Source of the DNA: Bacteroidota bacterium
GTDB lineage: Bacteria > Bacteroidota > Bacteroidia > AKYH767-A > 2013-40CM-41-45
Reading direction: 5' to 3'
Assembly: GCA_026391945.1 (NCBI GenBank)
Contig: JAPLDA010000009.1
Coordinates: 33,932 to 97,931 of the forward strand
Length of the DNA stretch: 64,000 nucleotides
Both the position numbers and the translations under genes were made by a program. Shown here piece by piece: positions 14,384-33,916 of the stretch (its first letter is position 1; every line of letters starts with the position of its first letter). A model generated the notes under the pieces. It saw only the letters and a list, made by a program, of their open reading frames with translations. It was not told the origin of the DNA and did no database searches.

Positions 14384-14463
14384 AGGTTTAGTGATTTTTA
14401 TTTTTTTAAATGACCAATCAAAATTCGGATTAAAAAATAGCTCCGACTATGATATTGATCATG

Positions 14464-16051: not shown

Positions 16052-17227
16052 ATGAATTCACCTGAACAACAACTTGAGAAATTACTTGACGAATGCAAGA
16101 CACTTGCCTTCGATTTGAATTTTACATACGCAAAGGATTGGAAAAAGCAATCCAAAAACCGGTTGCTTGTCGGGTATCTCCCGATTTATGTTCCGCGTGA
16201 AATTATTCATGCTGCCAATGCATTGCCTGTTGGCATCATGGGAGTTGGTGACAGGAAACAAATTATCAAAGGCGATGCCTATTACCAGTCATACATCTGC
16301 CACCTGCCGAGAGGGATCATAGAAATGGCTCTCGATCACAACCTGGAAAACTTCGACGGATTTCTTTTTCCTGCAATCTGTGATTGTGTAAGGAATCTTT
16401 CAGGGATGTTCAAGATTGTTAAAAAAGGGAAGTTCACCCGCTATTTTGATTATCCTCAGAATTTTGATGCGCTGATCGGTGGTGTTTTTTACCGCGAGTT
16501 GCTCGAGACCGTTATCCACGACATGTATCTTCTGAACGGAGTAAAAATTACCATCGAAAATCTCAATCACTCCATCAAACTTTACAACATCAACCGCCGG
16601 CTGATTGAAAAGATATACGATATCCGCCAGGAATTTCCATGGCGTCTTTCGGCCGTGGATGTATATCATATCATTCGTGCAGGCCTGGTGATCACGGTTG
16701 AAAAACACAATGAGATTTTGGAAGAAGTGGTTTCGCTGATTGAAAAAGATTCCGGAGAACCCCTGGATAATATCCGTGTGGTAGTATCAGGATCGTTCTG
16801 TGAACAGCCGCCGGTTGGCCTGATCAAATCCATCGAAATGGCCGGATGCTATATCGTGGATGATGATTTCATGCTCGGATCAAGATGGATACAAGGTGAT
16901 ATCAACGCAGCCACCAATAACCCGGTCAACGAAATCGTAAAATCATTCCTCGAACAGAGCGCTCCTTCTTCTGCAATTTATGATGTCGCCAATCCGAAAG
17001 GAAAACGGCTGGTCGACCTGGTGAAAAAAAGAAAAGCGGACGGTGTGATCTTCTGCGCAGCAAGTTTCTGTGATCCGGCTTTGCTCGATCGCCCTGACTT
17101 GCAGAAGTCCTGCGACGAAGCAGGAGTGAATCACATCAATTTCCAGTTCCATGAAAACACCGGGCAGTTCAAGGTGATCAAAGAGCAGGCAGGAACATTT
17201 TCTGACTCCATCAAACTCTGGGTATAA
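16052..17227 (+). CDS. bcrC: Benzoyl-CoA reductase subunit C (BcrC/BadD-like)
   Basis: 2-hydroxyacyl-CoA dehydratase/BCR family; first of a four-gene bcrCBAD-ordered set; DDDFMLGSRWIQGDI motif. Confidence 0.88.
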   Translation: MNSPEQQLEKLLDECKTLAFDLNFTYAKDWKKQSKNRLLVGYLPIYVPREIIHAANALPVGIMGVGDRKQIIKGDAYYQSYICHLPRGIIEMALDHNLENFDGFLFPAICDCVRNLSGMFKIVKKGKFTRYFDYPQNFDALIGGVFYRELLETVIHDMYLLNGVKITIENLNHSIKLYNINRRLIEKIYDIRQEFPWRLSAVDVYHIIRAGLVITVEKHNEILEEVVSLIEKDSGEPLDNIRVVVSGSFCEQPPVGLIKSIEMAGCYIVDDDFMLGSRWIQGDINAATNNPVNEIVKSFLEQSAPSSAIYDVANPKGKRLVDLVKKRKADGVIFCAASFCDPALLDRPDLQKSCDEAGVNHINFQFHENTGQFKVIKEQAGTFSDSIKLWV

Positions 17228-17271
17228 AAAGTTAAACAAATTGTCTGTCAACTAAACCAAATCAAATCACC

Positions 17272-18570
17272 ATGAGCAATCCGCAGGAAGCCATCAAGGA
17301 AAAAAGTATGATCATTCAGAAAGAGATGCTTGGAAATCTTTTTACTGAATTGAGCACGGCAAAAGAGAACGGAAAAAAAGTAGTCTACACTTTTGTTCCG
17401 GGAAACCTCACCGAACTGATTCTCGCTCTCGACATGTTGCCGGTGTACCCGGAAATCAATGCCCTTCAGTCGGGCATGAGAAAAAAATCCGGTTCGTATA
17501 TTAAAGATGCCGAGAAGATTGGTTTCAGTGAAGACGTTTGCACGTATGTGAAATGCGATATTGGAATGATGCTCAACGGCAACATCGGTCCCACCGGCGA
17601 AAAACTTCCTGATCCCGACATGCTGCTGTTAAGTTACACCGGCTGCTTCACGTTCCTGAAATGGTTTGAAAACCTTGAACGACTCTTCCCGGGAGTTGAA
17701 ATTGCCATGCTTCACACGCCTTACCAGGAAGACGGAAGGATTACCGACGACCAGGTGAACTACATGGTGAAGCAATTGAAAGAAGAAGTGATTCCGAAAA
17801 TGGAAAAAGTAGCCGGAAAAAAAATGGACTACAACCGTCTTTCAAAGATGCTGGCGAATTCAGCGAAGTCGGAAGATTTATGGGTGAAGGTCCTGGAGTC
17901 GGCAAAGAATGTCCCATCGCCGATTGATTCCTACTTCGCAGGTGTGTATTACATGGGGCCGTTGAACACGGCTTTTCGCGGAACCGATATGGCACTTCAG
18001 TATTACCAGGAATTGTTCAATGAAGTGGACGACCGTTTGAAAAAAGGTTTGCTCCCGATCAATCCCGAAGGTGAAATGAAAAAGGAAAGGTACCGGCTGG
18101 TCGTTGAAGGTCCGCCTAACTGGACCAACTTCCGCGAGTTCTGGAAAATATTTTATGACATGGGAGCGGTGATTGTTGCATCCACTTACACCAAAGTGGG
18201 CGGTGTGTACGACCGTGGATTCCGTCATGAACCTGAGAAACCCCTGGAGAGCTTGTCAAAATACTGCATGGGTTGTTATACGAATCTCAATCTGGAACAG
18301 CGTGTTGATTTGATTGAACATTATATCAAAGAATACAAAGCCGACGGGTTTCTCATCAACTCCATCAAGAGTTGCAATTCATTTTCCGCAGGGCAATTGC
18401 TGATGATGCGCGAGATTGAGCAACGATGCGGTGTTCCGGTGGGCTTCATCGAAAGTGACCTGGTGGATCCGCGTTATTTTTCTTATGCCAACATCAAGAA
18501 CCGTCTTGAGTCCTATTTCCAGATGCTGGAACAAAGAAAGATCATCATGTCACAGGAGGCGACCGTCTGA
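17272..18570 (+). CDS. bcrB: Benzoyl-CoA reductase subunit B (BcrB/BadE-like)
   Basis: 432 aa; LLLSYTGCFTFLKWFENLERLFPGVE; KYCMGCYTNLNLEQRV; position between bcrC and bcrA. Confidence 0.88.
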   Translation: MSNPQEAIKEKSMIIQKEMLGNLFTELSTAKENGKKVVYTFVPGNLTELILALDMLPVYPEINALQSGMRKKSGSYIKDAEKIGFSEDVCTYVKCDIGMMLNGNIGPTGEKLPDPDMLLLSYTGCFTFLKWFENLERLFPGVEIAMLHTPYQEDGRITDDQVNYMVKQLKEEVIPKMEKVAGKKMDYNRLSKMLANSAKSEDLWVKVLESAKNVPSPIDSYFAGVYYMGPLNTAFRGTDMALQYYQELFNEVDDRLKKGLLPINPEGEMKKERYRLVVEGPPNWTNFREFWKIFYDMGAVIVASTYTKVGGVYDRGFRHEPEKPLESLSKYCMGCYTNLNLEQRVDLIEHYIKEYKADGFLINSIKSCNSFSAGQLLMMREIEQRCGVPVGFIESDLVDPRYFSYANIKNRLESYFQMLEQRKIIMSQEATV

Positions 18571-18611
18571 GTTTATAAATGAAAGCAACACCATTAACTG
18601 ATAACTGATCC

Positions 18612-20039
18612 ATGAGCAAATATTATCTCGGAGTTGACCTTGGCTCCACCACATCAAAGGCTGTCATCATCAATGAACAGGATGAAATCATCGGGCGCGG
18701 AATCACCAACACCCGCGCTAACTATGCTGTTGCTGCTGATATTGCACGCGACGAAGCCATTTACAATGCGCGTTTTTCCGTGCTGAAGAAAAAGCTGGAA
18801 GCTGAAATGAAAGCGAAACCGGAGTACCATAAATACATTACCGATCTCGAAAGTGTTTTTCAATATGAGCAGTTCAAAGTACGGCTGGATAAACTGGGTG
18901 AAGAACTTCTGAAAACCTGCTATACATTTTTCAAGGAAGAAAAAAGAAGAGAAGAAATTCTGAATCACCTGCGGAATATCCGGAAAGCTTTTAAGCCGAA
19001 AATAAAACACGAATACCTTTTTAAAAACCTTGGAGCGAAAAACCAGTTTTTCCGTGACATCGTTTCGGAACGGTACAACGAAGAAGTAAACAAACTCGAC
19101 CTGTCGTTGTTTGAGCCGCTGATGACCGTATGGGACAAGAGTATCAGTCCAGCCGAAAATGAGCGTGTGCAATTTGATTTCGAAGAGCTCATTCATAAAG
19201 CCATGGATGAGTTGAAAGACAAATACAAAAATCTTCCTGATACTGCCGCTGAAGATACCAGCGTAAATTTTGATGCAGAGATCAACCTGCTGAAAGGAAA
19301 ATTCGATCACGTTTCGGAATCGCTGCGTGAGCACATCGATGAGATCGCTGCGATTGAATTCAATATTGAAAACATGACAGGAACCGGCTACGGAAGAGCT
19401 CTTCTGCCGTTTCCGCAGGAGTGCATCCGTTCAGAAATTTTGTGTCATGCATTTGGTGCTCATGCCGTTTTTCCGGAAACAAGAACCGTACTCGACATCG
19501 GCGGGCAGGATACGAAGGCGATACAGGTTGACAAGTACGGACTCGTTACCAGTTTCCAGATGAACGATCGTTGTGCTGCCGGCTGCGGACGTTACCTCGG
19601 TTACATTGCCGATGAGATGAGTATTTCATTGAATGAACTGGGACCAATGGCGATGCAGGCGGAGAAGGAAGTAACCATCTGTTCCACCTGTACCGTGTTT
19701 GCCGGCGCTGAGTTAAGGGAACTCACCAATCTTGGTGAGAAGCGTGCCGACATTCTTGGAGGTTTGCACAAAGCGATTATCATGCGTGCCATGTCATTGA
19801 TCGCGCGTTCGGGAGGAGTATTCAATGAATTTACTTTTACCGGCGGAGTAGCCCGTAACCAAGCCGTCATCAAGTACCTCACCCAACTGGTGAAAGAAAA
19901 TTACGGAGACAACATCCGGATTAACATTCACACCGATTCCATTTTTATGGGAGCGCTCGGAGGTGCCATGTTTGCCAGGAGAAATATCCTTACCAATCTT
20001 CCTGACGAAAAAAAATCAAAAGAAATTACCATAGAATAA
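18612..20039 (+). CDS. bcrA: Benzoyl-CoA reductase subunit A (ATPase/activase, BcrA/BadF-like)
   Basis: YYLGVDLGSTTSKAVIINE; long helical insertion; NDRCAAGCGRYL and CSTCTVFAGAEL activase cysteine motifs. Confidence 0.9.
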   Translation: MSKYYLGVDLGSTTSKAVIINEQDEIIGRGITNTRANYAVAADIARDEAIYNARFSVLKKKLEAEMKAKPEYHKYITDLESVFQYEQFKVRLDKLGEELLKTCYTFFKEEKRREEILNHLRNIRKAFKPKIKHEYLFKNLGAKNQFFRDIVSERYNEEVNKLDLSLFEPLMTVWDKSISPAENERVQFDFEELIHKAMDELKDKYKNLPDTAAEDTSVNFDAEINLLKGKFDHVSESLREHIDEIAAIEFNIENMTGTGYGRALLPFPQECIRSEILCHAFGAHAVFPETRTVLDIGGQDTKAIQVDKYGLVTSFQMNDRCAAGCGRYLGYIADEMSISLNELGPMAMQAEKEVTICSTCTVFAGAELRELTNLGEKRADILGGLHKAIIMRAMSLIARSGGVFNEFTFTGGVARNQAVIKYLTQLVKENYGDNIRINIHTDSIFMGALGGAMFARRNILTNLPDEKKSKEITIE

Positions 20040-20054
20040 TCTAACAACAAGTCA

Positions 20055-20894
20055 ATGGACAAACCTGTTTATACAATCGGAATTGATGTTGGAAGTAATT
20101 TCATCAAACTCATCCTGATGAAATATTCCGATCATCCTGAAATCATCGACAAACACACTGAAAAAATCCGCAAGCGCGATCCGTCGGCGGTGGCAGACGA
20201 AATCGTGAATGCCATACTCGAAAAAAACGGGTTAAAATACGAGGACATTGCTTACCTCGCTTCCACCGGTGAAGGCGATTTGGTAAAAAGAAAGCGCGGT
20301 CATTTTTACGGGATGACGACTCACGCAAAAGGCGCCAATTTCTTTTTCCCTGATGCGAGAACAGTGGTTGATCTTGGAGCACTTTATGTGCGTGCCATCC
20401 GCATCAACGAAGGCGCGCGCGTGGAAGATTACAAGATGACGGGCCAGTGTGCATCAGGCTCCGGGCAGTTCCTTGAAAATATTTCGCGTTACCTCGGCTT
20501 GTCAATCGAAGAAGTCGGCGAGGTTTCCATGCAGGCAACACAACCGGAAGTTTCATCCGGCATTTGCGCCGTACTTGCCGAAACAGATGTGATCAACATG
20601 GTGTCGCGCGGAATAACGACTCCTGACATCATCAAAGGAATTCATATTTCTATTGCTTCCCGGATCATCAAATTACTGAGCTCATTAAAAGCAGAGTCAC
20701 CGATCGTATTAACCGGCGGAATGGCGTTGAACAAAGGAATGATCCAGGCGATTGACGAGCAACTGAAAGAAGGGAATAAAAAATTCATTGTCAAGGCTCA
20801 TCCTGATTCCATCTATGCAGGAGCCATCGGCGCTGCTTTGTGGGGAGGATACCGTCATCTTAAGTTGAAAGAAAAACAGGCAGAGGCAGTTTAA
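20055..20894 (+). CDS. bcrD: Benzoyl-CoA reductase subunit D (ATPase/activase, BcrD/BadG-like)
   Basis: TIGIDVGSNFIKLILMK; TGQCASGSGQFLENISRYLG; ICAVLAETDVIN. Confidence 0.9.
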   Translation: MDKPVYTIGIDVGSNFIKLILMKYSDHPEIIDKHTEKIRKRDPSAVADEIVNAILEKNGLKYEDIAYLASTGEGDLVKRKRGHFYGMTTHAKGANFFFPDARTVVDLGALYVRAIRINEGARVEDYKMTGQCASGSGQFLENISRYLGLSIEEVGEVSMQATQPEVSSGICAVLAETDVINMVSRGITTPDIIKGIHISIASRIIKLLSSLKAESPIVLTGGMALNKGMIQAIDEQLKEGNKKFIVKAHPDSIYAGAIGAALWGGYRHLKLKEKQAEAV

Positions 20895-20904
20895 AAAAAC
20901 CAGG

Positions 20905-23046
20905 ATGGAAGCGATTTTAAAAAACGAAATAAAAAAAAACGTCTCGGGAAAATCAGTTCACGAACTGGATTCACTTTTCAAACCCAAAGCGATTGCCATC
21001 ATCGGCGCTTCTTCCAAAGAGCTTTCCATTGGAAATGTGATCCTGAAAAATCTTGTTCATTATGGATACACCGGGAAAATTTATCCCATCAATCCGAAAG
21101 AACCGGAAGTGAGAGGCATCAAAGCATACCCGACCATTTTTGATGTGCCGGGAGACATTGACCTCGCGCACGTCATCATCCCGGGAAAATTTGTTCCGCA
21201 GATCATTGAAGATTGCGGGAAGAGAGGAATCAAATCAGTCATCATCAACTCGGCGGGATTCAGTGAGATGGGAGAAGAAGGAATGGCGCTTCAAACAGCC
21301 TTTCTTACCAATGCAAAAAAATACGGAGTCCGGATTTTCGGCCCCAATTGCCAGGGCATCATCAACGCCGATCCACAATACAAAGCCTACTGCGATTTCA
21401 CGTTTACATTTCCGAAACCCGGCAGCATTTCCATTGTTGCCTTGAGCGGCGGCGTCGGTGCCTTCATCATGCAGAGTTTGTTTGATCTGGAGATCGGGAT
21501 GCGCATGTATGCATCCAACGGAAACGCCTGCGATGTTTCCATTTCGGAAGTGGTGAATTATTATGGTGAAGACGAAGGAACCAAAGCCGTTATTTTATAT
21601 ACGGAAGGTTTTCACAACCCGAAAGAGTTCATGGATGTGGCACAAATTGTTTCAAAGAAGAAACCGATTCTCGCCATGAAAGCCGGCCGCACGGAAGAAG
21701 GCGCGAAAGCCGCCGCCTCTCACACAGGCTCACTGGCAGGAGTGGACATCGCTACCGAATTGATTTTTGAAAAAACAGGAATACTTACTTTCAATAATGA
21801 AGAAGAAATGTGCCAGGCAGCCATGGCTTTTTCTACACAACCGATTCCGAAAGGAAACCGTGTCGGCATCATCACCAACACAGGTGGCCCTGCCGTGATT
21901 GCCACCGATGAACTGGTGAGTGCAGGACTGCAGCTTCCCGCCTTATCAGAAAAAGCAAAAAATATTCTGAAAGAAACCATGCTTCCTGAAGCCACCATCG
22001 GAAACCCGATTGATGTGGTGGCAACGGGCGGAGGAAAACATTTCCGCAGTGCACTGGATGTACTGATGGATGAAGAAACGATTGATTCCGTTTACATCAA
22101 TTTTGTCACGGCACCGTTTACGGATACCGATGATGTTGCCAGGAATATTGTGGAAGTGAATAAACAGAATCGTAAGCCGATCGTCTGCAACTTTATGACG
22201 AACATGAGCCTTGAACGTTTCCAGGTGACAGCAAAAATTTTAAAAGACGGCGGAGTTCCTTGTTATAGTTTCCCGACTACTGCTGCAAAGGCGCTTGGCG
22301 CATTGTATCAATACCACCAGGTACAGTCAAGGAATATCGGTGAAGCAAAAAATTTCAGTGATACAAACAAAGCCGGTGCTGAGAAGATTTTAGAGCAGGC
22401 GAAAAATGAAAACAGAGAATTTCTTTCTTCTGCCGCTACGTATCAATTGCTTTCTCATTATAACATTCCTGTTGCCGACTGGCGCATAGCTGCTGATGCA
22501 AATAGTGCAATTCAAGCTGCCGAAGAAATCGGGTTTCCTGTTGTCATCAAAGCAGATGCAGAATCATTGGTTCATAAGAGCGACATGGGTGGTGTAGCCG
22601 TCAATTTAAAAAATGCCGATGAAATTCACGCGACTGTTGAGAGGATGAAAAAATCTTTTGATTCAAAGGATTTGAAATTCTTTGTTCAGAAATTTTTACC
22701 GGGAGGAAGAGAGTTAATAGCCGGTGTGAGTGCGAAAAAAGATCTCGGCCATCTCATCATGTTCGGCATCGGCGGAATTTATGTTGAGGTGCTGAAAGAT
22801 GTGGTCTTCAAAATTTCTCCCGTCACCGAAGTGGAGGCAAAAGAAATGCTTTCGTCCATCAAGACTTCAAAATTACTGGATGGTGTGAGAGGAGAAAAAG
22901 GAATTCACAAACATAGCGTGATTGAAATTATTCAACGCCTATCGCAACTGGTTACTGATTTTCCGGAGATACAGGAAATGGATTTGAACCCCATCATGGC
23001 GTTTGAGAATAAAGCATTAGTTGTTGACGCGAGAATAAGAATTTAA
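20905..23046 (+). CDS. Acyl-CoA (acetyl-CoA) synthetase, ADP/NDP-forming, fused alpha-beta type
   Basis: CoA-binding domain AIAIIGASSKELSIGNVILKNL; GRTEEGAKAAASHTGSLAG; C-terminal ATP-grasp GFPVVIKADAESLVHKSDMGGVAVNL. Confidence 0.9.
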   Translation: MEAILKNEIKKNVSGKSVHELDSLFKPKAIAIIGASSKELSIGNVILKNLVHYGYTGKIYPINPKEPEVRGIKAYPTIFDVPGDIDLAHVIIPGKFVPQIIEDCGKRGIKSVIINSAGFSEMGEEGMALQTAFLTNAKKYGVRIFGPNCQGIINADPQYKAYCDFTFTFPKPGSISIVALSGGVGAFIMQSLFDLEIGMRMYASNGNACDVSISEVVNYYGEDEGTKAVILYTEGFHNPKEFMDVAQIVSKKKPILAMKAGRTEEGAKAAASHTGSLAGVDIATELIFEKTGILTFNNEEEMCQAAMAFSTQPIPKGNRVGIITNTGGPAVIATDELVSAGLQLPALSEKAKNILKETMLPEATIGNPIDVVATGGGKHFRSALDVLMDEETIDSVYINFVTAPFTDTDDVARNIVEVNKQNRKPIVCNFMTNMSLERFQVTAKILKDGGVPCYSFPTTAAKALGALYQYHQVQSRNIGEAKNFSDTNKAGAEKILEQAKNENREFLSSAATYQLLSHYNIPVADWRIAADANSAIQAAEEIGFPVVIKADAESLVHKSDMGGVAVNLKNADEIHATVERMKKSFDSKDLKFFVQKFLPGGRELIAGVSAKKDLGHLIMFGIGGIYVEVLKDVVFKISPVTEVEAKEMLSSIKTSKLLDGVRGEKGIHKHSVIEIIQRLSQLVTDFPEIQEMDLNPIMAFENKALVVDARIRI

Positions 23047-23139: not shown

Positions 23140-24378
23140 ATGTATAAAATACAATCTGCAAAAATCCTGAAGGAAGTAATGGGAAATTATTTTCTGGGAA
23201 TGAAAGACACCGGTAAAAAATATGCGTGGTGTACAAGCGTAGGTCCCGCCGAGTTGCTGCGCTCATTTGGTTTTGAAGTCCACTTCCCTGAAAACCACGG
23301 AGCGTTATTGGGAGCCACACGAACCTCCGGCGATTTTATTCCCGAGAGCGCAAGCCTGGGATATAACAACGACATCTGTTCATACCTGACTTCAGACATC
23401 GGTTCCTATTTAAAAAAGAAAACTCCATTGCAGGAACATTATGGTTTGAATGGCCCGCCTAAACCGGACATCATCGTTTACAATACCAATCAATGCCGCG
23501 AAGTGCAGGATTGGTTCATGTATTTTGCAAAAGAAATGAATTGTCCGGTTGTCGGCATCACACCTCCAAGGCATGTGGATGAAGTCACCGATGCGCACAT
23601 CAACGATGTGAGCGCGCAGTTCAAAGCGATGATTCCTGCCTGTGAAAAGGCAAGCGGAAAAAAATTCGACATTGATAAATTCAGGGAAACGCTGCGGCTG
23701 AGCAAGGAAGCAACCGACCTGTGGAAGAAGGTTTTGTGGACGGCCACCGCTTCTCCTTCACCAATCAGTTTTTTTGATGCGACCATTCACATGGGGCCGA
23801 TCGTGGTTTTGCGCGGAACGCAGACAGCCAAAGATTATTACTCAACGCTGTTAAAGGAACTGAAAGAAAATGTTTCCAAAAAAGTCGGGTTTCTTGAAGA
23901 CGAGCGTTTCCGGATTTACTGGGACGGAATGCCGATCTGGGGAAAGTTAAGGCCGATGTCGGAATTGTTTATCCAGAACAAAGCTGCTGTGGTTGCTTCT
24001 ACCTATTGCAACAGCTGGGTGTTTGATGCATTCGATGAAGAACATCCGTTCGAGACATCTGCAAAAGCATACACCGAAATTTTCATCAACAGAAGTGAAG
24101 AGGCGAAGGAAAAAATATTAGCCGGCCTGGTCGAAGATTTCCGGATCGACGGAATGATTTTTCATGATGCAAAGACCTGCGCCAATAATTCCAACTCCCG
24201 TTTTGGAATGCCGCAGCGAATTACTGAAAAACTTGGCATCCCGACTTTGGTGGTGGAAGGTGATTTGTGTGATTTGCGTTTTTACTCCGAAGGACAAACC
24301 ACCACAAAAATTGAAACATTCATTGAACAGATAGAAAGCCTGCCTGCCGGACAGGCAAGTACAAAAGTGCTTAGCTGA
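23140..24378 (+). CDS. 2-hydroxyacyl-CoA dehydratase / BcrB-HgdA family protein, orphan paralogue
   Basis: 412 aa sharing layout with BcrB (N-terminal helix, GYNNDICSYLTSDIGSYL, HDAKTCANNSNSRFGMPQ, LVVEGDLCDLR); divergent from 17272-18570. Confidence 0.75.
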   Translation: MYKIQSAKILKEVMGNYFLGMKDTGKKYAWCTSVGPAELLRSFGFEVHFPENHGALLGATRTSGDFIPESASLGYNNDICSYLTSDIGSYLKKKTPLQEHYGLNGPPKPDIIVYNTNQCREVQDWFMYFAKEMNCPVVGITPPRHVDEVTDAHINDVSAQFKAMIPACEKASGKKFDIDKFRETLRLSKEATDLWKKVLWTATASPSPISFFDATIHMGPIVVLRGTQTAKDYYSTLLKELKENVSKKVGFLEDERFRIYWDGMPIWGKLRPMSELFIQNKAAVVASTYCNSWVFDAFDEEHPFETSAKAYTEIFINRSEEAKEKILAGLVEDFRIDGMIFHDAKTCANNSNSRFGMPQRITEKLGIPTLVVEGDLCDLRFYSEGQTTTKIETFIEQIESLPAGQASTKVLS

Positions 24379-24407
24379 TTGATTGGTGAAATAAAAAAAA
24401 CAAAATC

Positions 24408-24878
24408 ATGAGCGGGAAAAATTCTTTTGAAAACCGGATCTATAAACTTTCCACTGGAGAGAAAGTAAGTTCCGCTGACCTCGAAAAGCTGATTGAAGGG
24501 AAATGCCACTATGTTCAATACGTCGCTATCGGGAAAGATGAAAAGGGTGATTCAGTCGCGTTGATTTTTCCGAATAAAAATTTACTGAACAATCCCGATT
24601 ACCAGCTAAGCCCGGAAGAAGGATGTTTTTGTCCGCGCAGCCTCGATGAACTCGGCAGATGCCTGACCGGTTGTTTGAAACTGGTGAATCAACAGATTGA
24701 TAATGATTCATCGAAAGTGAAATCAGCGGCCATCATCAACACGAATTTTCCTGCCGGGGACGAAACATCGATTACTTCCCAACACGTTTTTGATAAATAC
24801 AAAGCACTGCTTCACGAGGCACATGGAGAAAATGTTCCGGCTGATGAAGAAATTTATTTTATAAAAAATGCACAATGA
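24408..24878 (+). CDS. Hypothetical protein resembling the C-terminal subdomain of AMP-forming acyl/feruloyl-CoA synthetases
   Basis: YKLSTGEKVSSADLEKLIEGKCHYVQYVAIGKDEKGDSVALIFPN resembles the GKWVS...YVQDVVI..G...ALIFPN region of ligases; no N-terminal adenylation core in the window. Confidence 0.45.
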   Translation: MSGKNSFENRIYKLSTGEKVSSADLEKLIEGKCHYVQYVAIGKDEKGDSVALIFPNKNLLNNPDYQLSPEEGCFCPRSLDELGRCLTGCLKLVNQQIDNDSSKVKSAAIINTNFPAGDETSITSQHVFDKYKALLHEAHGENVPADEEIYFIKNAQ

Positions 24879-26731
24879 AAAACGCCATGGATTCAGCGAA
24901 AATAAAAATCGGTGTGGTGGGCTTAGGCCCCGTGGGGATGATCTTAGCGGTTAAACTGAAAGAAGCCGGTTGTGACGTAGCCTTGTGCGATAAGGATGAA
25001 TTCAAACTGAAAAAAATCCGCGAAGAAGGAATTGTCCTGGAGAATATCATTGAATCAAAAACGGTTTTTGACAAGGTGTACGATTCTCCCAGGGACATGC
25101 GCCACCTCGACCTGGACTATCTTGTTTTTTCACTGAAGACTTACCAGACATTGGGTGCAGCCAAAGAAGCTGAAATACTGAACTCCGATAAAATCACACT
25201 GGTGTCAGCGCAAAACGGAATTGATTCGGAGAAACTGGTCTCCTCTGTTTTTGGAGAATCCAAAACGCTTCGCATGGTCATCAACTATGCAGGAAATTTA
25301 CGTTCACCGAATACGGTGAGGGTTTCTTTCGTAACTCCTCCGAACTACGTTGGTTCCATCGACGACAGCCGGACCAAACAAGCGGAACGTTTTGCAGGAA
25401 TCTTAAACAGTGTCGGGTTCGCCACCGAAAGACTTGATTCGTTCGAACTGGTAAAAAGCACCTGGGAAAAAACAATTCTCAATTCATCACTCAGCGCCCT
25501 GTGCGGAGTGGGGCGGCTCACGATGATGGAAGCCATGGCCGATGCCGACACGATGGAATTGATCGAACAAATCATCAACGAAGGAATTGATGTTGCTGAA
25601 AAAGAAAAAGTCCGGTTCCCGGATGACTTCCTGAGAAAATGCATGTTGTACCTGAGGAAGGGCGGCGATCATTTTCCCTCTCTCGCCGTTGACCTCATCA
25701 ACAACAGGCAAACGGAAATAGATTACTTCAACGGGAAAATTGTGGAGTACGGAAAAAAACATTACGTGAAAACATCGCTGAACCTTGCCTTCACCAACAT
25801 GGTAAAAGCCATGACGAATAAAAATGTGCTGGCGAGATTTCCCGGCGTGGAAGGCGAACTCAATAAAATCATCATCAGCAAAGGGCTGGTGGATAAAAAT
25901 AAACCTTCTGTTTTTTACCAGGAACAGAATTGTTTTATGGGAATTGATCTCGGTTCCGCATTCACCAAGTTCACCATCGTTGATGAAAATGGAAATCCTG
26001 TATTCAGGTACGTTTTACAGACGATGAACAAGGATCGCCACGCCATGAAAAACATTCTCAAGGCGATTCATTCGACATTTAAGATCAGCCACAGCTGCGC
26101 CACCGGTTACGGAAGAAAACATTTTACCGATACCGACATCGTGAAAACTGAAATCAACTGCGCTTCCGCCGGTGTTTCGGAATTTTTCGGCGGCGAAAAA
26201 AACATCATCGACATCGGGGGAGAAGACATTAAAATCATTCATTGCGACTACGAAAATCACGTAGCGAATTTTTACATGAATGATAAATGTGCTGCCGGAA
26301 CCGGTGCTTTCCTGGAAGAAATTTCGGAACGTGCGGAAATCAATATTTCTGAAATGAGCAGTCTGGCATCGAATTCAGAATACAACAGGGAACTGAACAG
26401 TTTCTGCACCGTGTTCGCCAAAACAGAAATCATGAATTGGGTGTTCGACGGAATGCCGCGGCAGGATATTGCAAGAGGAATTTATATTTCGATTGCCAAC
26501 AAAGTCGCGAAGATGAGGCTCTACCCAAACATCCCGACATTCATGATCGGTGGTGTGATCGCTCATCATCCTTACCTGAACAAAATTCTCTGTGATAAAT
26601 TCAACATAGAAATAAAAACGGTTGATCAGCCGCAGTACATCGTATCGTTTGGTGCAGCGATGATAGCAAGGCTAACCTGGCTGGCGCTGCACCCGTTAGA
26701 AATCAAACAGGCCGAAACACTCACTCATTAA
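24875..26731 (+). CDS. Fusion: ketopantoate-reductase-like dehydrogenase (N-terminal) plus BadF/BadG/BcrA/BcrD/HgdC-type activase ATPase (C-terminal)
   Basis: N-terminal IGVVGLGPVGMILAVKL and KSTWEKTILNSSLSALCGV; from about residue 353 CFMGIDLGSAFTKFTIVDENG, NDKCAAGTGAFLEEISERA, FCTVFAKTEIMN. Confidence 0.85.
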   Translation: MKNAMDSAKIKIGVVGLGPVGMILAVKLKEAGCDVALCDKDEFKLKKIREEGIVLENIIESKTVFDKVYDSPRDMRHLDLDYLVFSLKTYQTLGAAKEAEILNSDKITLVSAQNGIDSEKLVSSVFGESKTLRMVINYAGNLRSPNTVRVSFVTPPNYVGSIDDSRTKQAERFAGILNSVGFATERLDSFELVKSTWEKTILNSSLSALCGVGRLTMMEAMADADTMELIEQIINEGIDVAEKEKVRFPDDFLRKCMLYLRKGGDHFPSLAVDLINNRQTEIDYFNGKIVEYGKKHYVKTSLNLAFTNMVKAMTNKNVLARFPGVEGELNKIIISKGLVDKNKPSVFYQEQNCFMGIDLGSAFTKFTIVDENGNPVFRYVLQTMNKDRHAMKNILKAIHSTFKISHSCATGYGRKHFTDTDIVKTEINCASAGVSEFFGGEKNIIDIGGEDIKIIHCDYENHVANFYMNDKCAAGTGAFLEEISERAEINISEMSSLASNSEYNRELNSFCTVFAKTEIMNWVFDGMPRQDIARGIYISIANKVAKMRLYPNIPTFMIGGVIAHHPYLNKILCDKFNIEIKTVDQPQYIVSFGAAMIARLTWLALHPLEIKQAETLTH

Positions 26732-26733
26732 TT

Positions 26734-27996
26734 ATGAAATCATTCCACTCGATAGAAAAGGGAATTGCAATTATTTACGACGATCTGTATTTGGTGAATG
26801 GAGCGCGTACTCCATTCGGAAAATTTTGCGGAACACTTGCACAGGTTTCCCCGACGGATCTTGGAATTTTTTCGAGCCGTGCGGCCATCGAAAAGTCAGG
26901 CGTCAATCCAAAGGAAATTGACCAGGCCATCATTGCGAACATCGGCCAGTCGTCGGGAGATGCTTATTTTCTTCCACGTCACATTGCCTTGTTTGCAGGA
27001 TTGCATGAATCGGTTCCGTCACTCATGGTGCAGCGGATCTGTGCTTCGGGATTTGAAACCATCATTGCTGCATCCGAACAGATCATGCTCGGGAAAGCCG
27101 ATACTGTTTTGTGCTGCGGAACAGAAAGTATGTCGCTTTCACCCACGGTGAGCTTTGGCAACCGCATGGGTTATCCTCTTGGACGGCCTGTGTTTAAAGA
27201 TATGTTGTGGGAAGCACTCGATGATACGGCTGCCGGTTACCCGATGGGTTATACGGCGGAGAATGTGGCGAAGAAACACAACATCACACGGCAGCAATGC
27301 GATGAGTTTGCGCTTCTTTCATTTCAGCGTTCGGTGGCTTCGCGCAACAGCAACATTTATAAAGATGAAATAGCTTCCGTAAATTCTGTTGTGTTTGAAG
27401 CGGAAGGACTGAAGCCAAGGAAGGTGAGGATACCGGGAGGTGTAAAGAATTTTGTTTCCGATGAACAGGTGCGTGAAACTACGCTGGAAGCACTGGCGAA
27501 ACTACCAACGGTATTTTCTGATGTGGGAGTACTCACCGCCGGGAATTGCAGCGGCATCGTTGACGGTTCCGCAGCTGTTGTCGTGGCGAATAAAAACAGC
27601 ATTCAGTCGAAAGGATTAAAACCGGTTGCCAAAGTAGTTGCTTCTGCAAGTTGCGGCATTGATCCCAAAGTAATGGGACTCGGCCCGGTTCCGGCAATCC
27701 GGCTTCTTCTTGAAATCACAGGATTGAAAATGGAAGACATCGGCTTGTTTGAAATCAACGAAGCTTTTTCTGCGCAAGTCATCGGCTGTGAAATTGAACT
27801 CGGATTGGATCGCGCCAAATTGAATGTGAACGGTGGCGCTATTGCCATTGGGCATCCGTTAGCAGCAACCGGAACAAGATTGTCGCTCACGATTTCAAGG
27901 GAAATGATTGCACGAAAAGTAAAATATGGAATTGCTTCTGCCTGTATTGGCGGCGGACAAGGAACGGCAGTGTTATTTGAAAATGTAAATCTTTAG
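26734..27996 (+). CDS. Thiolase family acetyl-CoA C-acyltransferase
   Basis: VQRICASGFETI, GGAIAIGHPLAATGTRL, ASACIGGGQGTAVLFE. Confidence 0.92.
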   Translation: MKSFHSIEKGIAIIYDDLYLVNGARTPFGKFCGTLAQVSPTDLGIFSSRAAIEKSGVNPKEIDQAIIANIGQSSGDAYFLPRHIALFAGLHESVPSLMVQRICASGFETIIAASEQIMLGKADTVLCCGTESMSLSPTVSFGNRMGYPLGRPVFKDMLWEALDDTAAGYPMGYTAENVAKKHNITRQQCDEFALLSFQRSVASRNSNIYKDEIASVNSVVFEAEGLKPRKVRIPGGVKNFVSDEQVRETTLEALAKLPTVFSDVGVLTAGNCSGIVDGSAAVVVANKNSIQSKGLKPVAKVVASASCGIDPKVMGLGPVPAIRLLLEITGLKMEDIGLFEINEAFSAQVIGCEIELGLDRAKLNVNGGAIAIGHPLAATGTRLSLTISREMIARKVKYGIASACIGGGQGTAVLFENVNL

Positions 27997-27998
27997 TC

Positions 27999-29111
27999 AT
28001 GTCGGATACAATTGAAAAAGTAAAATCAAATTCTTCTGCGATAAAACGGACAGAAAAAATTTATCAGTGGCAGATGATTGAACCGGATAAGGAGTTTAAT
28101 CTTGTTGAACAACCCGTTCCGGAATTGAAAGAAGGAGAAGTGTTGGTGCAAATAGCCGGTTGCGGAGTTTGTCACACCGATATCAGTTTCTGGCATCATG
28201 GAGTTCAGACGAAACATGCATTGCCACTTACGCTGGGGCATGAAATCAGCGGAACGGTTGTGGACGGATCACAGGAATGGATTGGAAAGAAGGTCATCAT
28301 CCCTGCCGTTCTTCCATGCGGTGAATGTGAGTTGTGTAAAAAAGGAAGAAGCAACATTTGCAGAAATCAATTGATGCCCGGAAATGATTTTCACGGTGGA
28401 TTTGCATCCCACATCGTGGTTCCTTCAAAATATTTATGTCATGTTCCTGCTGATGTGTTGAAAAAATATTCGCTGGAGCAACTGTCGGTGATTGCAGATG
28501 CCATCTCCACTCCTTACCAGGTGGTGAAGAAATCAGAACTGGAAACAGGAGACCTTGCCATTGTGATCGGAGTCGGAGGCGTTGGGGTGTACGGTGCGCT
28601 GATCGCCAAAATTTTCGGAGCCAAAGTCATTGCACTCGACATCAACGATGAAAAATTAAATACGGCAAAGGCCAATGGCGTGGATGCCATCCTCAATATT
28701 AAAGGGCTGGATACAAAAACCATTAAGGAAAAAGTAAAGGAGCTTGCCAAAGAAATCAAAGCACCGAAAACCGGGTGGAAAATTTTTGAGATCAGCGGAA
28801 CGAAAGCAGGACAGGACTTGGCTTTCAACCTCATCACGTTTACTTCCACACTTTCCATCGTCGGGTTTACGATGGATAAAGTGGAAGTCCGCCTGAGTAA
28901 CCTCATGGCATTCGATGCAAAACTCATCGGTACCTGGGGATGCCGTGCTGAATTATATCCCGAAGTACTCGACCTCGTAGCAAAGGACAAATTAAACATT
29001 TCCGGTTTCGTGCAGACGTTCCCGATGTCAGAAATCAATAACGTATTTAAAAATACATTGGAACATAAGTACACCAAACGTTCGGTGCTGGTGCCGGATT
29101 TTAACGGATAG
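27999..29111 (+). CDS. had: 6-hydroxycyclohex-1-ene-1-carbonyl-CoA dehydrogenase
   Basis: Zn-ADH fold; LPCGECELCKKGRSNICRNQLMPGNDFHGGFASHIVVP; TGWKIFEISGTKAGQ; GFTMDKVEVRLSNLMAFDAKLIGTWGC. Confidence 0.88.
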   Translation: MSDTIEKVKSNSSAIKRTEKIYQWQMIEPDKEFNLVEQPVPELKEGEVLVQIAGCGVCHTDISFWHHGVQTKHALPLTLGHEISGTVVDGSQEWIGKKVIIPAVLPCGECELCKKGRSNICRNQLMPGNDFHGGFASHIVVPSKYLCHVPADVLKKYSLEQLSVIADAISTPYQVVKKSELETGDLAIVIGVGGVGVYGALIAKIFGAKVIALDINDEKLNTAKANGVDAILNIKGLDTKTIKEKVKELAKEIKAPKTGWKIFEISGTKAGQDLAFNLITFTSTLSIVGFTMDKVEVRLSNLMAFDAKLIGTWGCRAELYPEVLDLVAKDKLNISGFVQTFPMSEINNVFKNTLEHKYTKRSVLVPDFNG

Positions 29112-29118
29112 CCTGGTC

Positions 29119-30306
29119 GTGAAAAAACATGTAGTCTTTATTTTGAGTCTCTTGCTGATTTTCAGCAGCGCCAGTTCGCAGACTGCAACATCAGTCGCCA
29201 ATGGAAACTGGACCAATCCGTTTGTATGGAGTTGCACGTGTGTTCCAACTCCGGGTTATACAGTCATCATCAATACAAGCGTAATGCTCAATACCAGTTT
29301 TGCATTTACTTCCGGGAGCATAACCATTAATAATGGCGCCTCACTTATTGAAGACGTACCAACCCGTGATATTTGGATGAATGGCGGCAGCTTAACCAAT
29401 GACGGAACCATGGATGTACGTTATCTCTGGACACAATCCGGCACTTTTTCAAACAGTGGCACCCTAACCGCACGTTCCATTCTGTGTAATGTGAATTTTA
29501 CCAATTCAGGAGATGTGGTGAACGTGGACAGCATGTACACAACAGCGACTGTAATTAACAATGGCCGTTTTCTGAATATCGACAGTGTGACGAACGGAGG
29601 AACTTTTGCCAACAATGGAATGTGTACCTATAACCAGTTTACCAACAACAACCAGTTCGTCAACAATAATATTTTAACCTTCACCGACATTACCAACAAT
29701 GGAACACTTACCAACGCTGATACCATCCTGGCAGCGAACAGTGGCTGGAATCGTGGGGTTTGGAATAATCTTGTGAATTCCTTTTTCCTGGTGAGTACCA
29801 GTTTTTTGAATGATGATAATGTAATGCATGATGCTGTGTTCAATAATAATGGAAAAATGCTGGTGATGGATAGCTGGTACAACATGGATACTGTGAAAGG
29901 AAGTTCGGCCGGAAGCATCATGGTGCAGGATTCTTCTTATAATTCAGGATGGATGAAAGGCTCTTTTGATTTTTGCGATTTGACACCGCCGCTCTCATCG
30001 CCTTATGTGGATATCAATACAGGAACTGTTTCGAATGGAATCACCTGGTGTCTTCAGACCGGCATGAATGAAGTAACAGAAAATGCTGTACATGTTTTTC
30101 CAAACCCGGCGACGACTGAATTGTTTATTGAAACAAAAAATCTAAAGGATTATACGGTTGAAATTTTTGATTCAGCAGGGAACAGGAAATGCTTCGAAAA
30201 AAACATTGCCGTTCTCGATATTTCGCATTATGAGCCGGGAATCTATTTGGTGTTCATTCAATCAAAAGAAAAAAACTTTACACAAAAAATTCAGATTACT
30301 AAATAA
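29119..30306 (+). CDS. Secreted protein with T9SS C-terminal sorting domain, Asn/Gly-rich repeats
   Basis: GTG start; signal peptide VVFILSLLLIFSSASSQ; multiple xNNG repeats; C-terminal VFPNPATTELFIE...YEPGIYLVFIQSKEKNFTQKIQITK. Confidence 0.85.
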   Translation: MKKHVVFILSLLLIFSSASSQTATSVANGNWTNPFVWSCTCVPTPGYTVIINTSVMLNTSFAFTSGSITINNGASLIEDVPTRDIWMNGGSLTNDGTMDVRYLWTQSGTFSNSGTLTARSILCNVNFTNSGDVVNVDSMYTTATVINNGRFLNIDSVTNGGTFANNGMCTYNQFTNNNQFVNNNILTFTDITNNGTLTNADTILAANSGWNRGVWNNLVNSFFLVSTSFLNDDNVMHDAVFNNNGKMLVMDSWYNMDTVKGSSAGSIMVQDSSYNSGWMKGSFDFCDLTPPLSSPYVDINTGTVSNGITWCLQTGMNEVTENAVHVFPNPATTELFIETKNLKDYTVEIFDSAGNRKCFEKNIAVLDISHYEPGIYLVFIQSKEKNFTQKIQITK

Positions 30307-31591: not shown

Positions 31592-31837
31592 ATGGCAAAA
31601 GTAAAAGGCGAAATTGTCGTAAACACCGAACGATGCAAAGGATGCCAGTTATGTGTTCCGGTGTGTAAAGAAAATGTGATTGCCATGTCGGAAAACCTGA
31701 ATGGAAAAGGGTATCACTTTGCGCAAAGTGTAAATGATGAATGCAACGGTTGCATCAATTGCGCATTGGTTTGTCCTGATGGTGCGATCACCGTGTACAG
31801 GGTAAAATTAAATGAATCACTAAAAGCAGCTTCGTAA
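31592..31837 (+). CDS. korD: 2-oxoacid:ferredoxin oxidoreductase delta/ferredoxin subunit (2x 4Fe-4S)
   Basis: CKGCQLCVPVCKENVI and CNGCINCALVCPDGAI, adjacent to korA. Confidence 0.88.
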   Translation: MAKVKGEIVVNTERCKGCQLCVPVCKENVIAMSENLNGKGYHFAQSVNDECNGCINCALVCPDGAITVYRVKLNESLKAAS

Positions 31838-32961
31838 TGAAAGACATCAGGTTAATGAAGGGTAACGAAGCATTCGCCGAAGGAGTTATTCGCGCGGGAT
31901 GCGATGGTTATTTTGGATATCCGATCACTCCCCAGTCAGAAGTATTGGAATATTTAGCGGCACAAAGAGCCGACGAAAGAACCGGTATGGTGGTGCTGCA
32001 GGCTGAAAGCGAAATTGCCTCCATCCACATGGTATATGGTGGTGCGGCCTGCGGGAAAAAAGTGTTGACGTCTTCTTCGAGTCCCGGAATCAGTTTGATG
32101 CAGGAAGGAATTTCTTTTTTGGCGGGAACAGAACTTCCGTGTTTGCTGTTGAACGTAGTGCGCGGCGGACCGGGACTGGGAACCATTCAGCCTTCACAGT
32201 CCGATTATTTCCAGGCGGTGAAAGGCGGTGGTCATGGTGATTATAAAATGATCGTGCTGGCGCCGGCATCGGTTCAGGAAATGTATGATTTTGCAAAACT
32301 CGGATTTGATCTGGCGTTTAAACACCGCATCCAGGTCATGATCTTATCAGACGGCGCCATCGGGCAAATGATGGAGAAGGTGGAACTGGATGACCAGGTT
32401 CCAAGAATGACCAATGAAGAAATCATTCAGAAATATCCATGGACGACGACAGGAAAAACTCCTGACAGGGAAAGAAACATCATCACCTCTCTTGATCTGA
32501 ATCCGGTAAGACAGGAAATCATCAACAGGAAGCTCCAGGAAAAATTTAAGAAGATCCAGGAAACAGAAGTTCGTTTTGAAAGGATTCAGTGTGATGATGC
32601 TGAGTATTTATTTGTCGCCTATGGATCCAGTGCACGCATTTGCCAGAAGGCTGTTATGCTTGGAAGAGCGCGTGGATTAAAAATCGGATTGCTTCGCCCG
32701 ATCACTCTTTTCCCTTTCCCTTCGGATGAATTGGCGAAATTATCTAAACAGGTTCACGGAATTTTATGTGTTGAAATGAGTGCGGGACAAATGGTGGAGG
32801 ATGTAAGACTGTCGGTGAATGGCGCTGTACCGGTTGAACACTACGGCCGCCTTGGCGGAATCATACCTGCCCCGGATGAAGTATTGCATGTGTTAGAAGA
32901 GAATTTCATTAATGAGACTATGATTTCAGAATCCGCCGCAGGCGGAGAACGGAAATCATAA
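31837..32961 (+). CDS. korA: 2-oxoglutarate:ferredoxin oxidoreductase alpha subunit
   Basis: MKGNEAFAEGVIRAGCDGYFGYPITPQSEVLEYLA. Confidence 0.9.
   Translation: MKDIRLMKGNEAFAEGVIRAGCDGYFGYPITPQSEVLEYLAAQRADERTGMVVLQAESEIASIHMVYGGAACGKKVLTSSSSPGISLMQEGISFLAGTELPCLLLNVVRGGPGLGTIQPSQSDYFQAVKGGGHGDYKMIVLAPASVQEMYDFAKLGFDLAFKHRIQVMILSDGAIGQMMEKVELDDQVPRMTNEEIIQKYPWTTTGKTPDRERNIITSLDLNPVRQEIINRKLQEKFKKIQETEVRFERIQCDDAEYLFVAYGSSARICQKAVMLGRARGLKIGLLRPITLFPFPSDELAKLSKQVHGILCVEMSAGQMVEDVRLSVNGAVPVEHYGRLGGIIPAPDEVLHVLEENFINETMISESAAGGERKS
32920..32959. repeat. Nested palindrome overlapping the korA 3' end
   Basis: Outer arms ATGATTTC/GAAATCAT, inner arms TCCGCC/GGCGGA. Confidence 0.7.
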
Positions 32962-32993
32962 AGTCGAATTAATCCCGGGCATCGTCGAGGGAT

Positions 32994-33014
32994 ATCCCGA
33001 TAGCGTATCGGGAT
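32994..33014. repeat. Palindromic hairpin in the korA-korB gap
   Basis: ATCCCGATA-GCG-TATCGGGAT. Confidence 0.75.
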
Positions 33015-33107
33015 TTGGTCAATACTCCGCAGTTCTGTTGCGGAAAATAATATTCAATTTGATACCTCGCAGCTCGGCTGTGGGGCCATACATAAAAGCA
33101 AAAAGTT

Positions 33108-33884: not shown

Positions 33885-33916
33885 TCATTGCAATCATTCA
33901 TTGAAAATATAACGAC

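What the first reader, a model, noticed from the sequence alone, without database searches (positions are those of the whole stretch)
23140..26731. Possible new reductase/dehydratase module: orphan BcrB/HgdA-like subunit, ligase-tail-like protein and dehydrogenase-activase fusion
Right after bcrCBAD and the ADP-forming synthetase lies a second, divergent BcrB/HgdA-family gene with no second dehydratase subunit beside it, then a 156-aa ligase-tail-like protein and the PanE-activase fusion. Known 2-hydroxyacyl-CoA dehydratases need two catalytic subunits plus an activase. The orphan may pair with BcrC, form a homodimer, or act on a substituted aryl-CoA or ring-cleavage intermediate. This three-gene set is not part of the canonical bcr, bad or bzd operons as I know them.
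Basis: inference. Interest (0 to 1): 0.88.

Follow-up and report, generated by a model that had tools for sequence, protein, structure and literature searches.

The report
Orphan radical-enzyme module beside benzoyl-CoA reductase
Bacteroidota-group bacteria that carry the ATP-driven enzyme for breaking down benzoate without oxygen also carry, wherever we looked, a second, related iron-sulfur protein with its own helper protein; it has no partner subunit anywhere in the genome, so it probably runs an extra, still unidentified reaction in this pathway.

Summary
23140-24378 (ORPH) is a third HGD-D gene beside bcrCBAD, and the 3.1-Mb, 100%-complete genome has no fourth. It belongs to a tight clade (65% identity or more over 80 loci; support 100/100) of the substrate-binding subunit lineage (HadB/BcrB/MbdO/BzdO). 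The AlphaFold model (pLDDT 92) is closest to HadB (TM 0.89). The three cluster cysteines and a HadB-like pocket are kept. Three further invariant cysteines include one at a double-cubane ligand position of BzdN/DCCP.

Across 26 ORPH genomes the HGD-D complement is a class I reductase pair (bcrCB or bzdNO) plus ORPH, never a HadC-like partner (one partial assembly shows ORPH alone). The PanE-activase is the lasting companion; its domains are separate genes in some lineages. The 156-aa protein is the leftover C-domain of an AMP-forming CoA ligase that was replaced by the ADP-forming one; it lost the ligase lysine motif but keeps a cysteine motif.

Best reading: a self-contained, ATP-activated, HAD-like CoA-ester enzyme, probably homodimeric, with a dedicated NAD(H)-dependent hydroxy/oxo-acid dehydrogenase-activase, feeding the benzoyl-CoA pathway. 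Substrate, dimer state and cluster type are inferred. A new variant of a known superfamily.

The parts
23140..24378 (+). ORPH: orphan HGD-D (2-hydroxyacyl-CoA dehydratase / benzoyl-CoA reductase) catalytic-type subunit, 412 aa
   Evidence: PF06050 4.5e-63; monophyletic clade sister to BcrB+MbdO; AF2 pLDDT 92, Foldseek best 3o3m_A HadB TM 0.89; only 3 HGD-D genes in genome
23230..23232 (+). ORPH Cys31, invariant; at the end of strand 1, within one residue of double-cubane ligand column 1 (BzdN C36, DCCP C76)
   Evidence: Possible ligand, not shown: MbdO also has a Cys in this column
23377..23379 (+). ORPH Cys80, core [4Fe-4S] ligand position (BzdO C95)
   Evidence: ligand role in BzdO from PMC11971306
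23494..23496 (+). ORPH Cys119, core [4Fe-4S] ligand position (BzdO C128)
24007..24009 (+). ORPH Cys290, invariant; exactly in the double-cubane ligand column of BzdN C263 / DCCP C309; Thr/Pro/Leu in BcrB, BzdO, HadB, MbdO
24178..24180 (+). ORPH Cys347, core [4Fe-4S] ligand position (BzdO C380)
24268..24270 (+). ORPH Cys377 (motif EGDLCDLRF), 98% conserved in ORPHs, Val/Ala/Gly in relatives; loop after strand 369-374 on the cluster side
24408..24878 (+). TAIL: 156-aa remnant of the C-terminal domain of an AMP-forming acyl-CoA ligase; lysine motif lost
   Evidence: aligns with C-domain of 582-aa ligases in L044, L062, L066; 40 short vs 32 long forms; fold search top hits are adenylation/ligase domains
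24504..24674 (+). TAIL cysteine motif C33 ... C73-F-C75-PRSLDELGR-C85-LTG-C89
   Evidence: C33, C73, C85, C89 at least 95% conserved in both short and long forms, C75 in short forms
24875..26731 (+). PanE-activase fusion, 618 aa
   Evidence: separate genes in L039-L041, L055, L065, L068, L071, L073 and unlinked in G160
24905..25819 (+). PanE/ApbA dehydrogenase domain (residues 11-315) with invariant K199, N114, S269, E281
   Evidence: TIGR00745 156.6 bits, cut-off 141; conservation; only PanE in this genome and none over the cut-off in six ORPH-less relatives
25937..26665 (+). Activase (ASKHA ATPase) domain (residues 355-597) with invariant C472 and C511
   Evidence: TIGR00241 170.6 bits, cut-off 125
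16052..20894 (+). bcrC, bcrB, bcrA, bcrD: class I (BCR-type) benzoyl-CoA reductase
   Evidence: TIGR02263, 02260, 02259, 02261
20905..23046 (+). ADP-forming acyl-CoA ligase (ACD) that stands where an AMP-forming ligase stands in sister loci
   Evidence: ACD only in 40 loci, full ligase only in 31, both in 1 with a decayed ligase
26734..29111 (+). thiolase and 6-hydroxycyclohex-1-ene-1-carbonyl-CoA dehydrogenase (had)
   Evidence: TIGR03201 467 bits
30315..31409 (+). 6-oxocyclohex-1-ene-1-carbonyl-CoA hydrolase (oah)
   Evidence: TIGR03200 611 bits

Best explanation
ORPH and the PanE-activase fusion form a self-contained, ATP-activated radical enzyme system of the benzoyl-CoA pathway in Bacteroidota and Ignavibacteria. 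SHOWN: ORPH is a conserved, separate clade of the catalytic (substrate-binding) subunit lineage, with the three cluster cysteines and a HadB-like pocket, no dedicated second subunit, and constant company of a PanE dehydrogenase, a third activase and a class I reductase. INFERRED: the activase domain (two invariant Cys, ATPase fold) docks on an ORPH homodimer and injects a low-potential electron; ORPH binds an acyl-CoA and performs HAD-type one-electron chemistry at its [4Fe-4S] cluster, most likely elimination of a hydroxyl next to the thioester. The extra cysteines (31, 290, 377) line the cavity where DCCP and BzdN hold the second cubane; they may give each ORPH its own electron store, so no HadC/BcrC-type subunit is needed. 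The PanE domain, NAD(H)-linked by its acidic residue after strand 2, makes or consumes the matching 2-hydroxy/2-oxo acid; one candidate route is arylpyruvate to aryllactate to aryllactyl-CoA to cinnamoyl-CoA to benzoyl-CoA. The ligase tail is a leftover domain, perhaps metal-binding, from the AMP ligase that once supplied the CoA ester.
For: Clade and sister placement. Fold closest to HadB, not to the electron-transfer subunits (TM 0.88-0.89 vs about 0.70). Pocket: Ser33 and Trp293 as in HadB, where BzdO has Leu302, and Gly35 where BzdO has Trp46, by alignment (BzdO roles). Six invariant Cys, one exactly and one nearly at the extra double-cubane ligand columns. No HadC-like partner in 26 genomes: complement is a reductase pair plus ORPH, apart from G456 whose partial assembly shows ORPH only. 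A homodimeric, two-component precedent exists: DCCP with its reductase (PMC11971306). PanE is absent above cut-off from six ORPH-less relatives and present in all eight ORPH genomes tested; fused in most, split in others. ORPH, PanE and activase persist even when on four different contigs (G160). ORPHs in bzd-type hosts are as conserved as those in bcr-type hosts (66-69% to the window), which argues against a partner drawn from the reductase. Catalytic residues of PanE and activase cysteines are invariant.
Against: No biochemistry. Characterised HADs and BCRs are heterodimers (PMC11574389). Only five of the six positions match double-cubane ligands even loosely, and BcrB orthologues also have five invariant Cys, so invariance alone does not prove ligation. 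A full double cubane might leave no room for an acyl group. ORPH has Asp124 where HadB, BcrB, MbdO and BzdO have Lys. The strict tie to the reductase is unexpected for an optional feeder route. The only hint of an amino-acid route, a HisC-like aminotransferase beside PanE in L055, L058 and L065, is the sole HisC over cut-off in the genomes tested and may just make histidine.
Confidence: 0.42

Rival explanations
1. ORPH is an alternative catalytic subunit that shares the electron-transfer subunit of the reductase (BcrC, or BzdN in bzd-type hosts), giving a second BcrC-ORPH heterodimer with different substrate range.
For: ORPH is of the BcrB/HadB type, which normally needs a BcrC/HadC type partner; BcrC is the only such protein in the genome; same operon; strict co-occurrence with the reductase.
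Against: The same ORPH clade (66-69% identity to the window's) occurs with BzdN, which lies far from BcrC in the tree; no extra branch length where the presumed partner changes. A dedicated third activase would be less needed if BcrAD already served BcrC.
Confidence: 0.25
2. ORPH is a second aryl-CoA reductase or dehydroxylase for substituted rings (for example 3-hydroxybenzoyl-CoA or salicyl-CoA), working beside BcrCB.
For: Sister to BcrB+MbdO in the tree (98/87); always beside a class I reductase; 4-hydroxybenzoyl-CoA reductase genes are in the same island, so hydroxylated aromatics are likely substrates.
Against: Ring-reduction residues of BzdO (Trp46, Leu302, His131) are not kept while HadB-like ones are; the PanE domain has no obvious role in such a reaction.
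Confidence: 0.13
3. ORPH-PanE-activase is an accessory of the reductase itself, for example activation, repair of over-reduced or misreduced CoA esters, or cluster maturation, and not a catabolic step of its own.
For: Near-perfect co-occurrence with either reductase type; the known pathway steps are otherwise covered by other genes in the operons.
Against: Well-studied Thauera, Aromatoleum and Rhodopseudomonas reductases work without such a gene (own knowledge of their operons; not re-tested here); the pocket and CoA-binding features point to a CoA-ester substrate.
Confidence: 0.12

Closest known systems
HadBC/HadI, (R)-2-hydroxyisocaproyl-CoA dehydratase (PDB 3o3m) and its relatives FldBC, HgdAB
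   Same: Fold of the alpha subunit (TM 0.89), three cluster cysteines, TSV/Ser and Trp pocket residues, a separate single activase, a hydroxyacid dehydrogenase in the same gene set
   Different: No beta subunit gene; three extra invariant Cys; activase fused to a PanE-type dehydrogenase; a CoA ligase instead of a CoA transferase; tied to benzoyl-CoA reductase
Class I benzoyl-CoA reductase catalytic subunits BcrB, MbdO, BzdO
   Same: Sister clade, same operon, CoA-binding region conserved (HMGP...LRGT)
   Different: Pocket residues of ring reduction not kept; no own electron-transfer subunit; own activase beside BcrAD
DCCP / DCCP-R (PDB 6eno, 7yyl) and E. coli YjiM/YjiL
   Same: Single catalytic gene plus single activase; Cys290 exactly and Cys31 nearly at double-cubane ligand positions
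   Different: Only 17-19% identity, in the other half of the tree; ligand Cys 5 absent and replaced, if at all, by Cys377; CoA-binding region retained
PanE family 2-oxoacid/2-hydroxyacid dehydrogenases (PDB 2ew2, 3wfi; 3wfi is D-mandelate dehydrogenase by my recollection)
   Same: Domain architecture, catalytic Lys, Asn, Ser and Glu
   Different: Fused to a dehydratase activase; not the housekeeping ketopantoate reductase of this lineage, whose ORPH-less members lack PanE over cut-off

Membership tests
HGD-D / BCR-HAD superfamily (PF06050) | Profile match over the full HGD-D domain | tested here: met
   214 bits vs cut-off 28.4, residues 34-398
HGD-D / BCR-HAD superfamily (PF06050) | Three Cys ligands of the core [4Fe-4S] cluster | tested here: met
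   C80, C119, C347 invariant in 81 ORPHs and aligned with all family members
2-hydroxyacyl-CoA dehydratase (HAD) | Alpha-beta heterodimer of two homologous subunits | tested here: not met
   No HadC-type gene in 26 ORPH genomes other than the reductase's own BcrC/BzdN
2-hydroxyacyl-CoA dehydratase (HAD) | Single activase with two cluster Cys per monomer | tested here: met
   C472 and C511 invariant; TIGR00241 above cut-off
2-hydroxyacyl-CoA dehydratase (HAD) | Passes the HadB equivalog model | tested here: not met
   227 bits vs cut-off 750
2-hydroxyacyl-CoA dehydratase (HAD) | Dehydration of a 2-hydroxyacyl-CoA | not testable with these tools
   needs enzyme assay
Class I benzoyl-CoA reductase, catalytic subunit | Passes BcrB (TIGR02260) or BzdO (TIGR03191) equivalog model | tested here: not met
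   162 vs 487 and 84 vs 449 bits
Class I benzoyl-CoA reductase, catalytic subunit | BzdO active-site residues (Glu65, Ser44, Trp46, His131, Leu302) | tested here: not met
   Glu51 and Ser33 kept; Gly35, Val122, Trp293 at the other three by alignment. BcrB also lacks His131, so that residue is not a strict criterion
Double-cubane cluster protein (DCCP) | Six ligand Cys at the DCCP/BzdN positions | tested here: inconclusive
   Four positions match exactly (C80, C119, C290, C347), C31 within one residue, position 5 missing, with C377 on the same face by secondary structure
Double-cubane cluster protein (DCCP) | Passes NF040772 | tested here: not met
   58 bits vs cut-off 350
Double-cubane cluster protein (DCCP) | Homodimer | not testable with these tools
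   only monomer prediction was available
AMP-forming acyl-CoA ligase (for TAIL) | Adenylation N-domain | tested here: not met
   156 aa only; N-domain absent
AMP-forming acyl-CoA ligase (for TAIL) | C-terminal domain homology | tested here: met
   43-53% identity to C-domains of 582-aa ligases; fold match
AMP-forming acyl-CoA ligase (for TAIL) | C-domain lysine motif (TLTPSMK) | tested here: not met
   present in the long forms, lost in the window and most short forms
PanE/ketopantoate reductase fold | Family model and catalytic residues | tested here: met
   TIGR00745 156.6 vs cut-off 141.4 bits; K199, N114, S269, E281 invariant

The most novel reading that the evidence does not exclude
ORPH is a homodimeric CoA-ester radical enzyme that carries a six-cysteine, double-cubane-like cofactor inside a HadB/BcrB-type catalytic subunit, so that one polypeptide does what two subunits do in all characterised dehydratases and reductases; it is energised by a fused dehydrogenase-activase that couples supply of the 2-hydroxy acid to ATP-driven electron injection.
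Probability: 0.22. Interest if true: 0.85.

Novelty: new variant of a known kind. Interest (0 to 1): 0.62.

Why it matters
Low-potential radical enzymes of this superfamily are understood as two-subunit machines plus an activase. A phylum-wide branch with one subunit, extra cysteines and its own dehydrogenase-activase would test the idea (PMC11971306) that subunits diverged from a homodimeric double-cubane ancestor. It would also point to an undescribed step in anaerobic aromatic breakdown by Bacteroidota and Ignavibacteria. I found no description of it in the papers I could search, but most subscription journals were not searchable. The ligase-tail protein is a clear natural example of a domain that outlives its enzyme.

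Tried and rejected
(1) BcrC-BcrB gene fusions suggested by long open frames: rejected, stop codons separate the genes. (2) HisC-like aminotransferase next to PanE in L055, L058 and L065 as proof of an aromatic amino-acid route: weakened, since it is the only HisC over cut-off in the genomes tested. (3) MobA-like NTP transferase and XdhC-like neighbours as part of a cofactor pathway with ORPH: explained as assembly genes of 4-hydroxybenzoyl-CoA reductase. (4) PanE domain as the housekeeping ketopantoate reductase: unlikely, ORPH-less relatives lack PanE over cut-off. (5) PanE as 3-hydroxypimeloyl-CoA dehydrogenase: unlikely as a general role, since 33 loci have a separate 3HCDH-crotonase fusion. 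(6) Measuring Cys-Cys distances in the AlphaFold model: no coordinates are given out; only strand and helix positions were used. (7) A gammaproteobacterial member (L062, titled Competibacteraceae): the genome search places it among relatives that largely coincide with the window's, and a Por tail protein lies in its bcr operon, so probably mislabelled. (8) Literature searches for PanE-activase fusions found nothing; the MbdONPQ structure paper was not found. (9) Plasmid searches as an outgroup control: relatives at most 29% identical; the three clusters inspected all show two adjacent HGD-D genes plus one activase.
Full report
WHAT IS THERE. The window is a contig of a 3.1-Mb Bacteroidota genome (100% complete, 0.63% contaminated). 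Genes at 16052-20894 are bcrC, B, A, D (bcrA is below its equivalog cut-off). They are followed by an ADP-forming acyl-CoA ligase (ACD), ORPH (23140-24378), TAIL (24408-24878), the PanE-activase fusion (24875-26731), thiolase, had and oah, then korABC-like genes and a dienoyl-CoA hydratase-like gene. Spacing (29 bp, -4 bp, 2 bp) indicates one operon. Upstream on the other strand is a 4-hydroxybenzoyl-CoA reductase set. The window is an anaerobic aromatic-degradation island.

ORPH. The whole genome holds only three HGD-D genes: BcrC, BcrB and ORPH. A pattern scan found 204 relatives in public genomes, of which 80 loci were kept; by their titles they are Bacteroidota or Ignavibacteria apart from a few unassigned or probably mislabelled records. 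In a maximum-likelihood tree ORPH is one clade (100/100) inside the catalytic-subunit half, sister to BcrB plus MbdO (98/87), with HadB just outside (84/52, weak). The AlphaFold2 model has pLDDT 92.1 and pTM 0.91. Its best PDB match is HadB 3o3m_A (TM 0.89), then MbdO and BzdO (0.85-0.88), then DCCP (0.75-0.78), then the electron-transfer subunits (about 0.70).

CLUSTER AND POCKET. The BzdNO paper (PMC11971306) reports that BzdO binds [4Fe-4S]-OH2 through C95, C128 and C380, and BzdN binds [8Fe-9S] through C36, C73, C100, C263, C293 and C327. By alignment, ORPH C80, C119 and C347 match the three core ligands in every family member. ORPH also has invariant C31 and C290 and 98%-conserved C377. 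C290 sits exactly in the double-cubane column of BzdN C263 and DCCP C309, where BcrB and BzdO have Thr, HadB Pro and MbdO Leu. C31 is one residue off column 1. Position 5 has no Cys, and C377 is unique to ORPH. In the model all six lie at strand C-termini or helix N-termini facing the interdomain cavity (inferred from secondary structure only). Caution: BcrB has five invariant Cys and BcrC six, and MbdO has a Cys in the C31 column, so a second cubane is possible, not shown. The pocket is HadB-like: Ser33, Glu51 and Trp293 are shared with HadB, while Gly35 and Trp293 stand where BzdO has Trp46 and Leu302 around the ring. Asp124 replaces a Lys common to HadB, BcrB, MbdO and BzdO.

CO-OCCURRENCE. 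The loci were collected with ORPH, so they cannot test independence; the genome surveys can. Among 61 relatives, 12 have both ORPH and BcrB and 49 have neither. Among 100 relatives of another carrier, 18 have both and 82 neither. In a 395-genome sample of the phylum, the 4 ORPH genomes each have a reductase pair (3 bcr, 1 bzd); the other 21 HGD-D-positive genomes belong to one other family and lack ORPH. The surveys overlap and the genomes are related, so these are not independent trials, and would not see a bzd pair without ORPH; would, and found none. Within 26 ORPH genomes (27 entries, one a duplicate) the HGD-D set is one reductase pair plus ORPH. Exceptions: G442 has bcr and bzd pairs, G160 (= G455) and G453 carry an extra partial hit, and G456 shows ORPH only in a partial assembly. 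ORPH sits with bzd-type pairs in G160, G453 and G454.

PANE-ACTIVASE. Fused in most loci, it is separate genes in L039-L041, L055, L058, L065, L068, L071 and L073, and in G160 the ORPH, two PanEs and activase lie on four contigs. Such fusion and fission supports a shared function. PanE catalytic residues and both activase cysteines are invariant in 59 sequences. An Asp after strand 2 suggests NAD(H) (inference). Six ORPH-less relatives have no PanE above cut-off, whereas all eight ORPH genomes tested do. This makes PanE part of the module and not a housekeeping gene.

TAIL. In 31 loci the gene before ORPH is a full AMP-forming ligase of about 580 aa (AMP-binding 1.3e-69), whose C-domain is 43-53% identical to TAIL. 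ACD alone occurs in 40 loci, the full ligase alone in 31, both in one, where the ligase is decayed (L039), and neither in 8, mostly short or cut-off loci. Intermediate 176-188-aa forms exist (L024, L030, L040, L041). The window protein and most short forms lack the lysine motif TLTPSMK, yet the motif C33 ... GCFCPRx(8)CLxGC stays in both forms. So an AMP ligase was replaced by an ADP-forming one, and its cysteine-bearing C-domain was retained under selection (dN/dS 0.12-0.15). The direction of replacement is inferred from the decaying forms. TAIL may bind metal or dock on ORPH or the fusion; nothing here decides.

MECHANISM. Shown: identity, conservation, absence of partner, association. Inferred: activase-driven electron injection into an ORPH homodimer, HAD-type radical chemistry on a CoA ester, PanE acting on the matching hydroxy/oxo acid. 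HAD chemistry and architecture are summarised in PMC11574389. I prefer the homodimer because ORPHs accompanying BzdN are as close to the window's (66-69%) as many accompanying BcrC, without extra branch length, although BcrC and BzdN are very different. The substrate is not identified; an aryllactyl-CoA route to benzoyl-CoA is one candidate only.

NOVELTY. It fails the equivalog cut-offs for HadB, BcrB, BzdO and DCCP and the heterodimer criterion of HAD, so it should not be named as any of these. It works within the same superfamily chemistry as far as the sequence tells, hence a new variant of a known kind. My literature check covered open-licence papers only.

Noticed in passing
window 9164-15802 (-): 4-hydroxybenzoyl-CoA reductase set: fused MoCo plus 2Fe-2S subunit (10093-12945), FAD subunit (9164-10096), MobA-like transferase (15164-15802), with an SDR (14464-15204) and a U32 protein (13136-14383) between; SDR and MobA-like relatives recur beside bcr in sister loci.
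   Followed up: partly
window 5558-9133 (-) and 31837-34471 (+): Two 2-oxoacid:ferredoxin oxidoreductases (one 1191-aa single chain, one split korABC-like) flank the bcr operon, likely ferredoxin reducers for the reductase.
   Followed up: partly
window 29119-30306 (+): A secreted-type ORF (signal-like start, C-terminus resembling a Por sorting tail) sits inside the catabolic operon between had and oah; a different Por-tail gene sits inside the bcr operon of L062 (6151-7260).
   Followed up: no
L024, L030, L039, L040, L041: A series of decaying AMP-forming ligases (181, 180, 522, 176, 188 aa) that coexist with the ADP-forming ligase: intermediate stages of enzyme replacement with a retained Cys motif.
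   Followed up: partly
L144:445-5287 and L142, L143: In bzd-type Ignavibacteria and Kapaibacteria, two PanE paralogues: one beside a HisC-like aminotransferase, the other beside MobA-like and XdhC-like genes and a FAD subunit of a molybdenum hydroxylase.
   Followed up: partly
L062 (JACSSC010000026.1): Genome titled Candidatus Competibacteraceae behaves as a Bacteroidota genome in the surveys; probably mislabelled.
   Followed up: partly
L097 and L098 (G442:C42): One genome carries both bcr-type and bzd-type benzoyl-CoA reductase genes on the same contig together with ORPH.
   Followed up: no
L151, L152, L153 (plasmids of Sphingopyxis, Azoarcus KH32C, Rhodococcus ruber): HGD-D pairs plus one activase next to acyl-CoA, SDR or CoA-transferase genes on plasmids of mostly aerobic bacteria; function unclear.
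   Followed up: no
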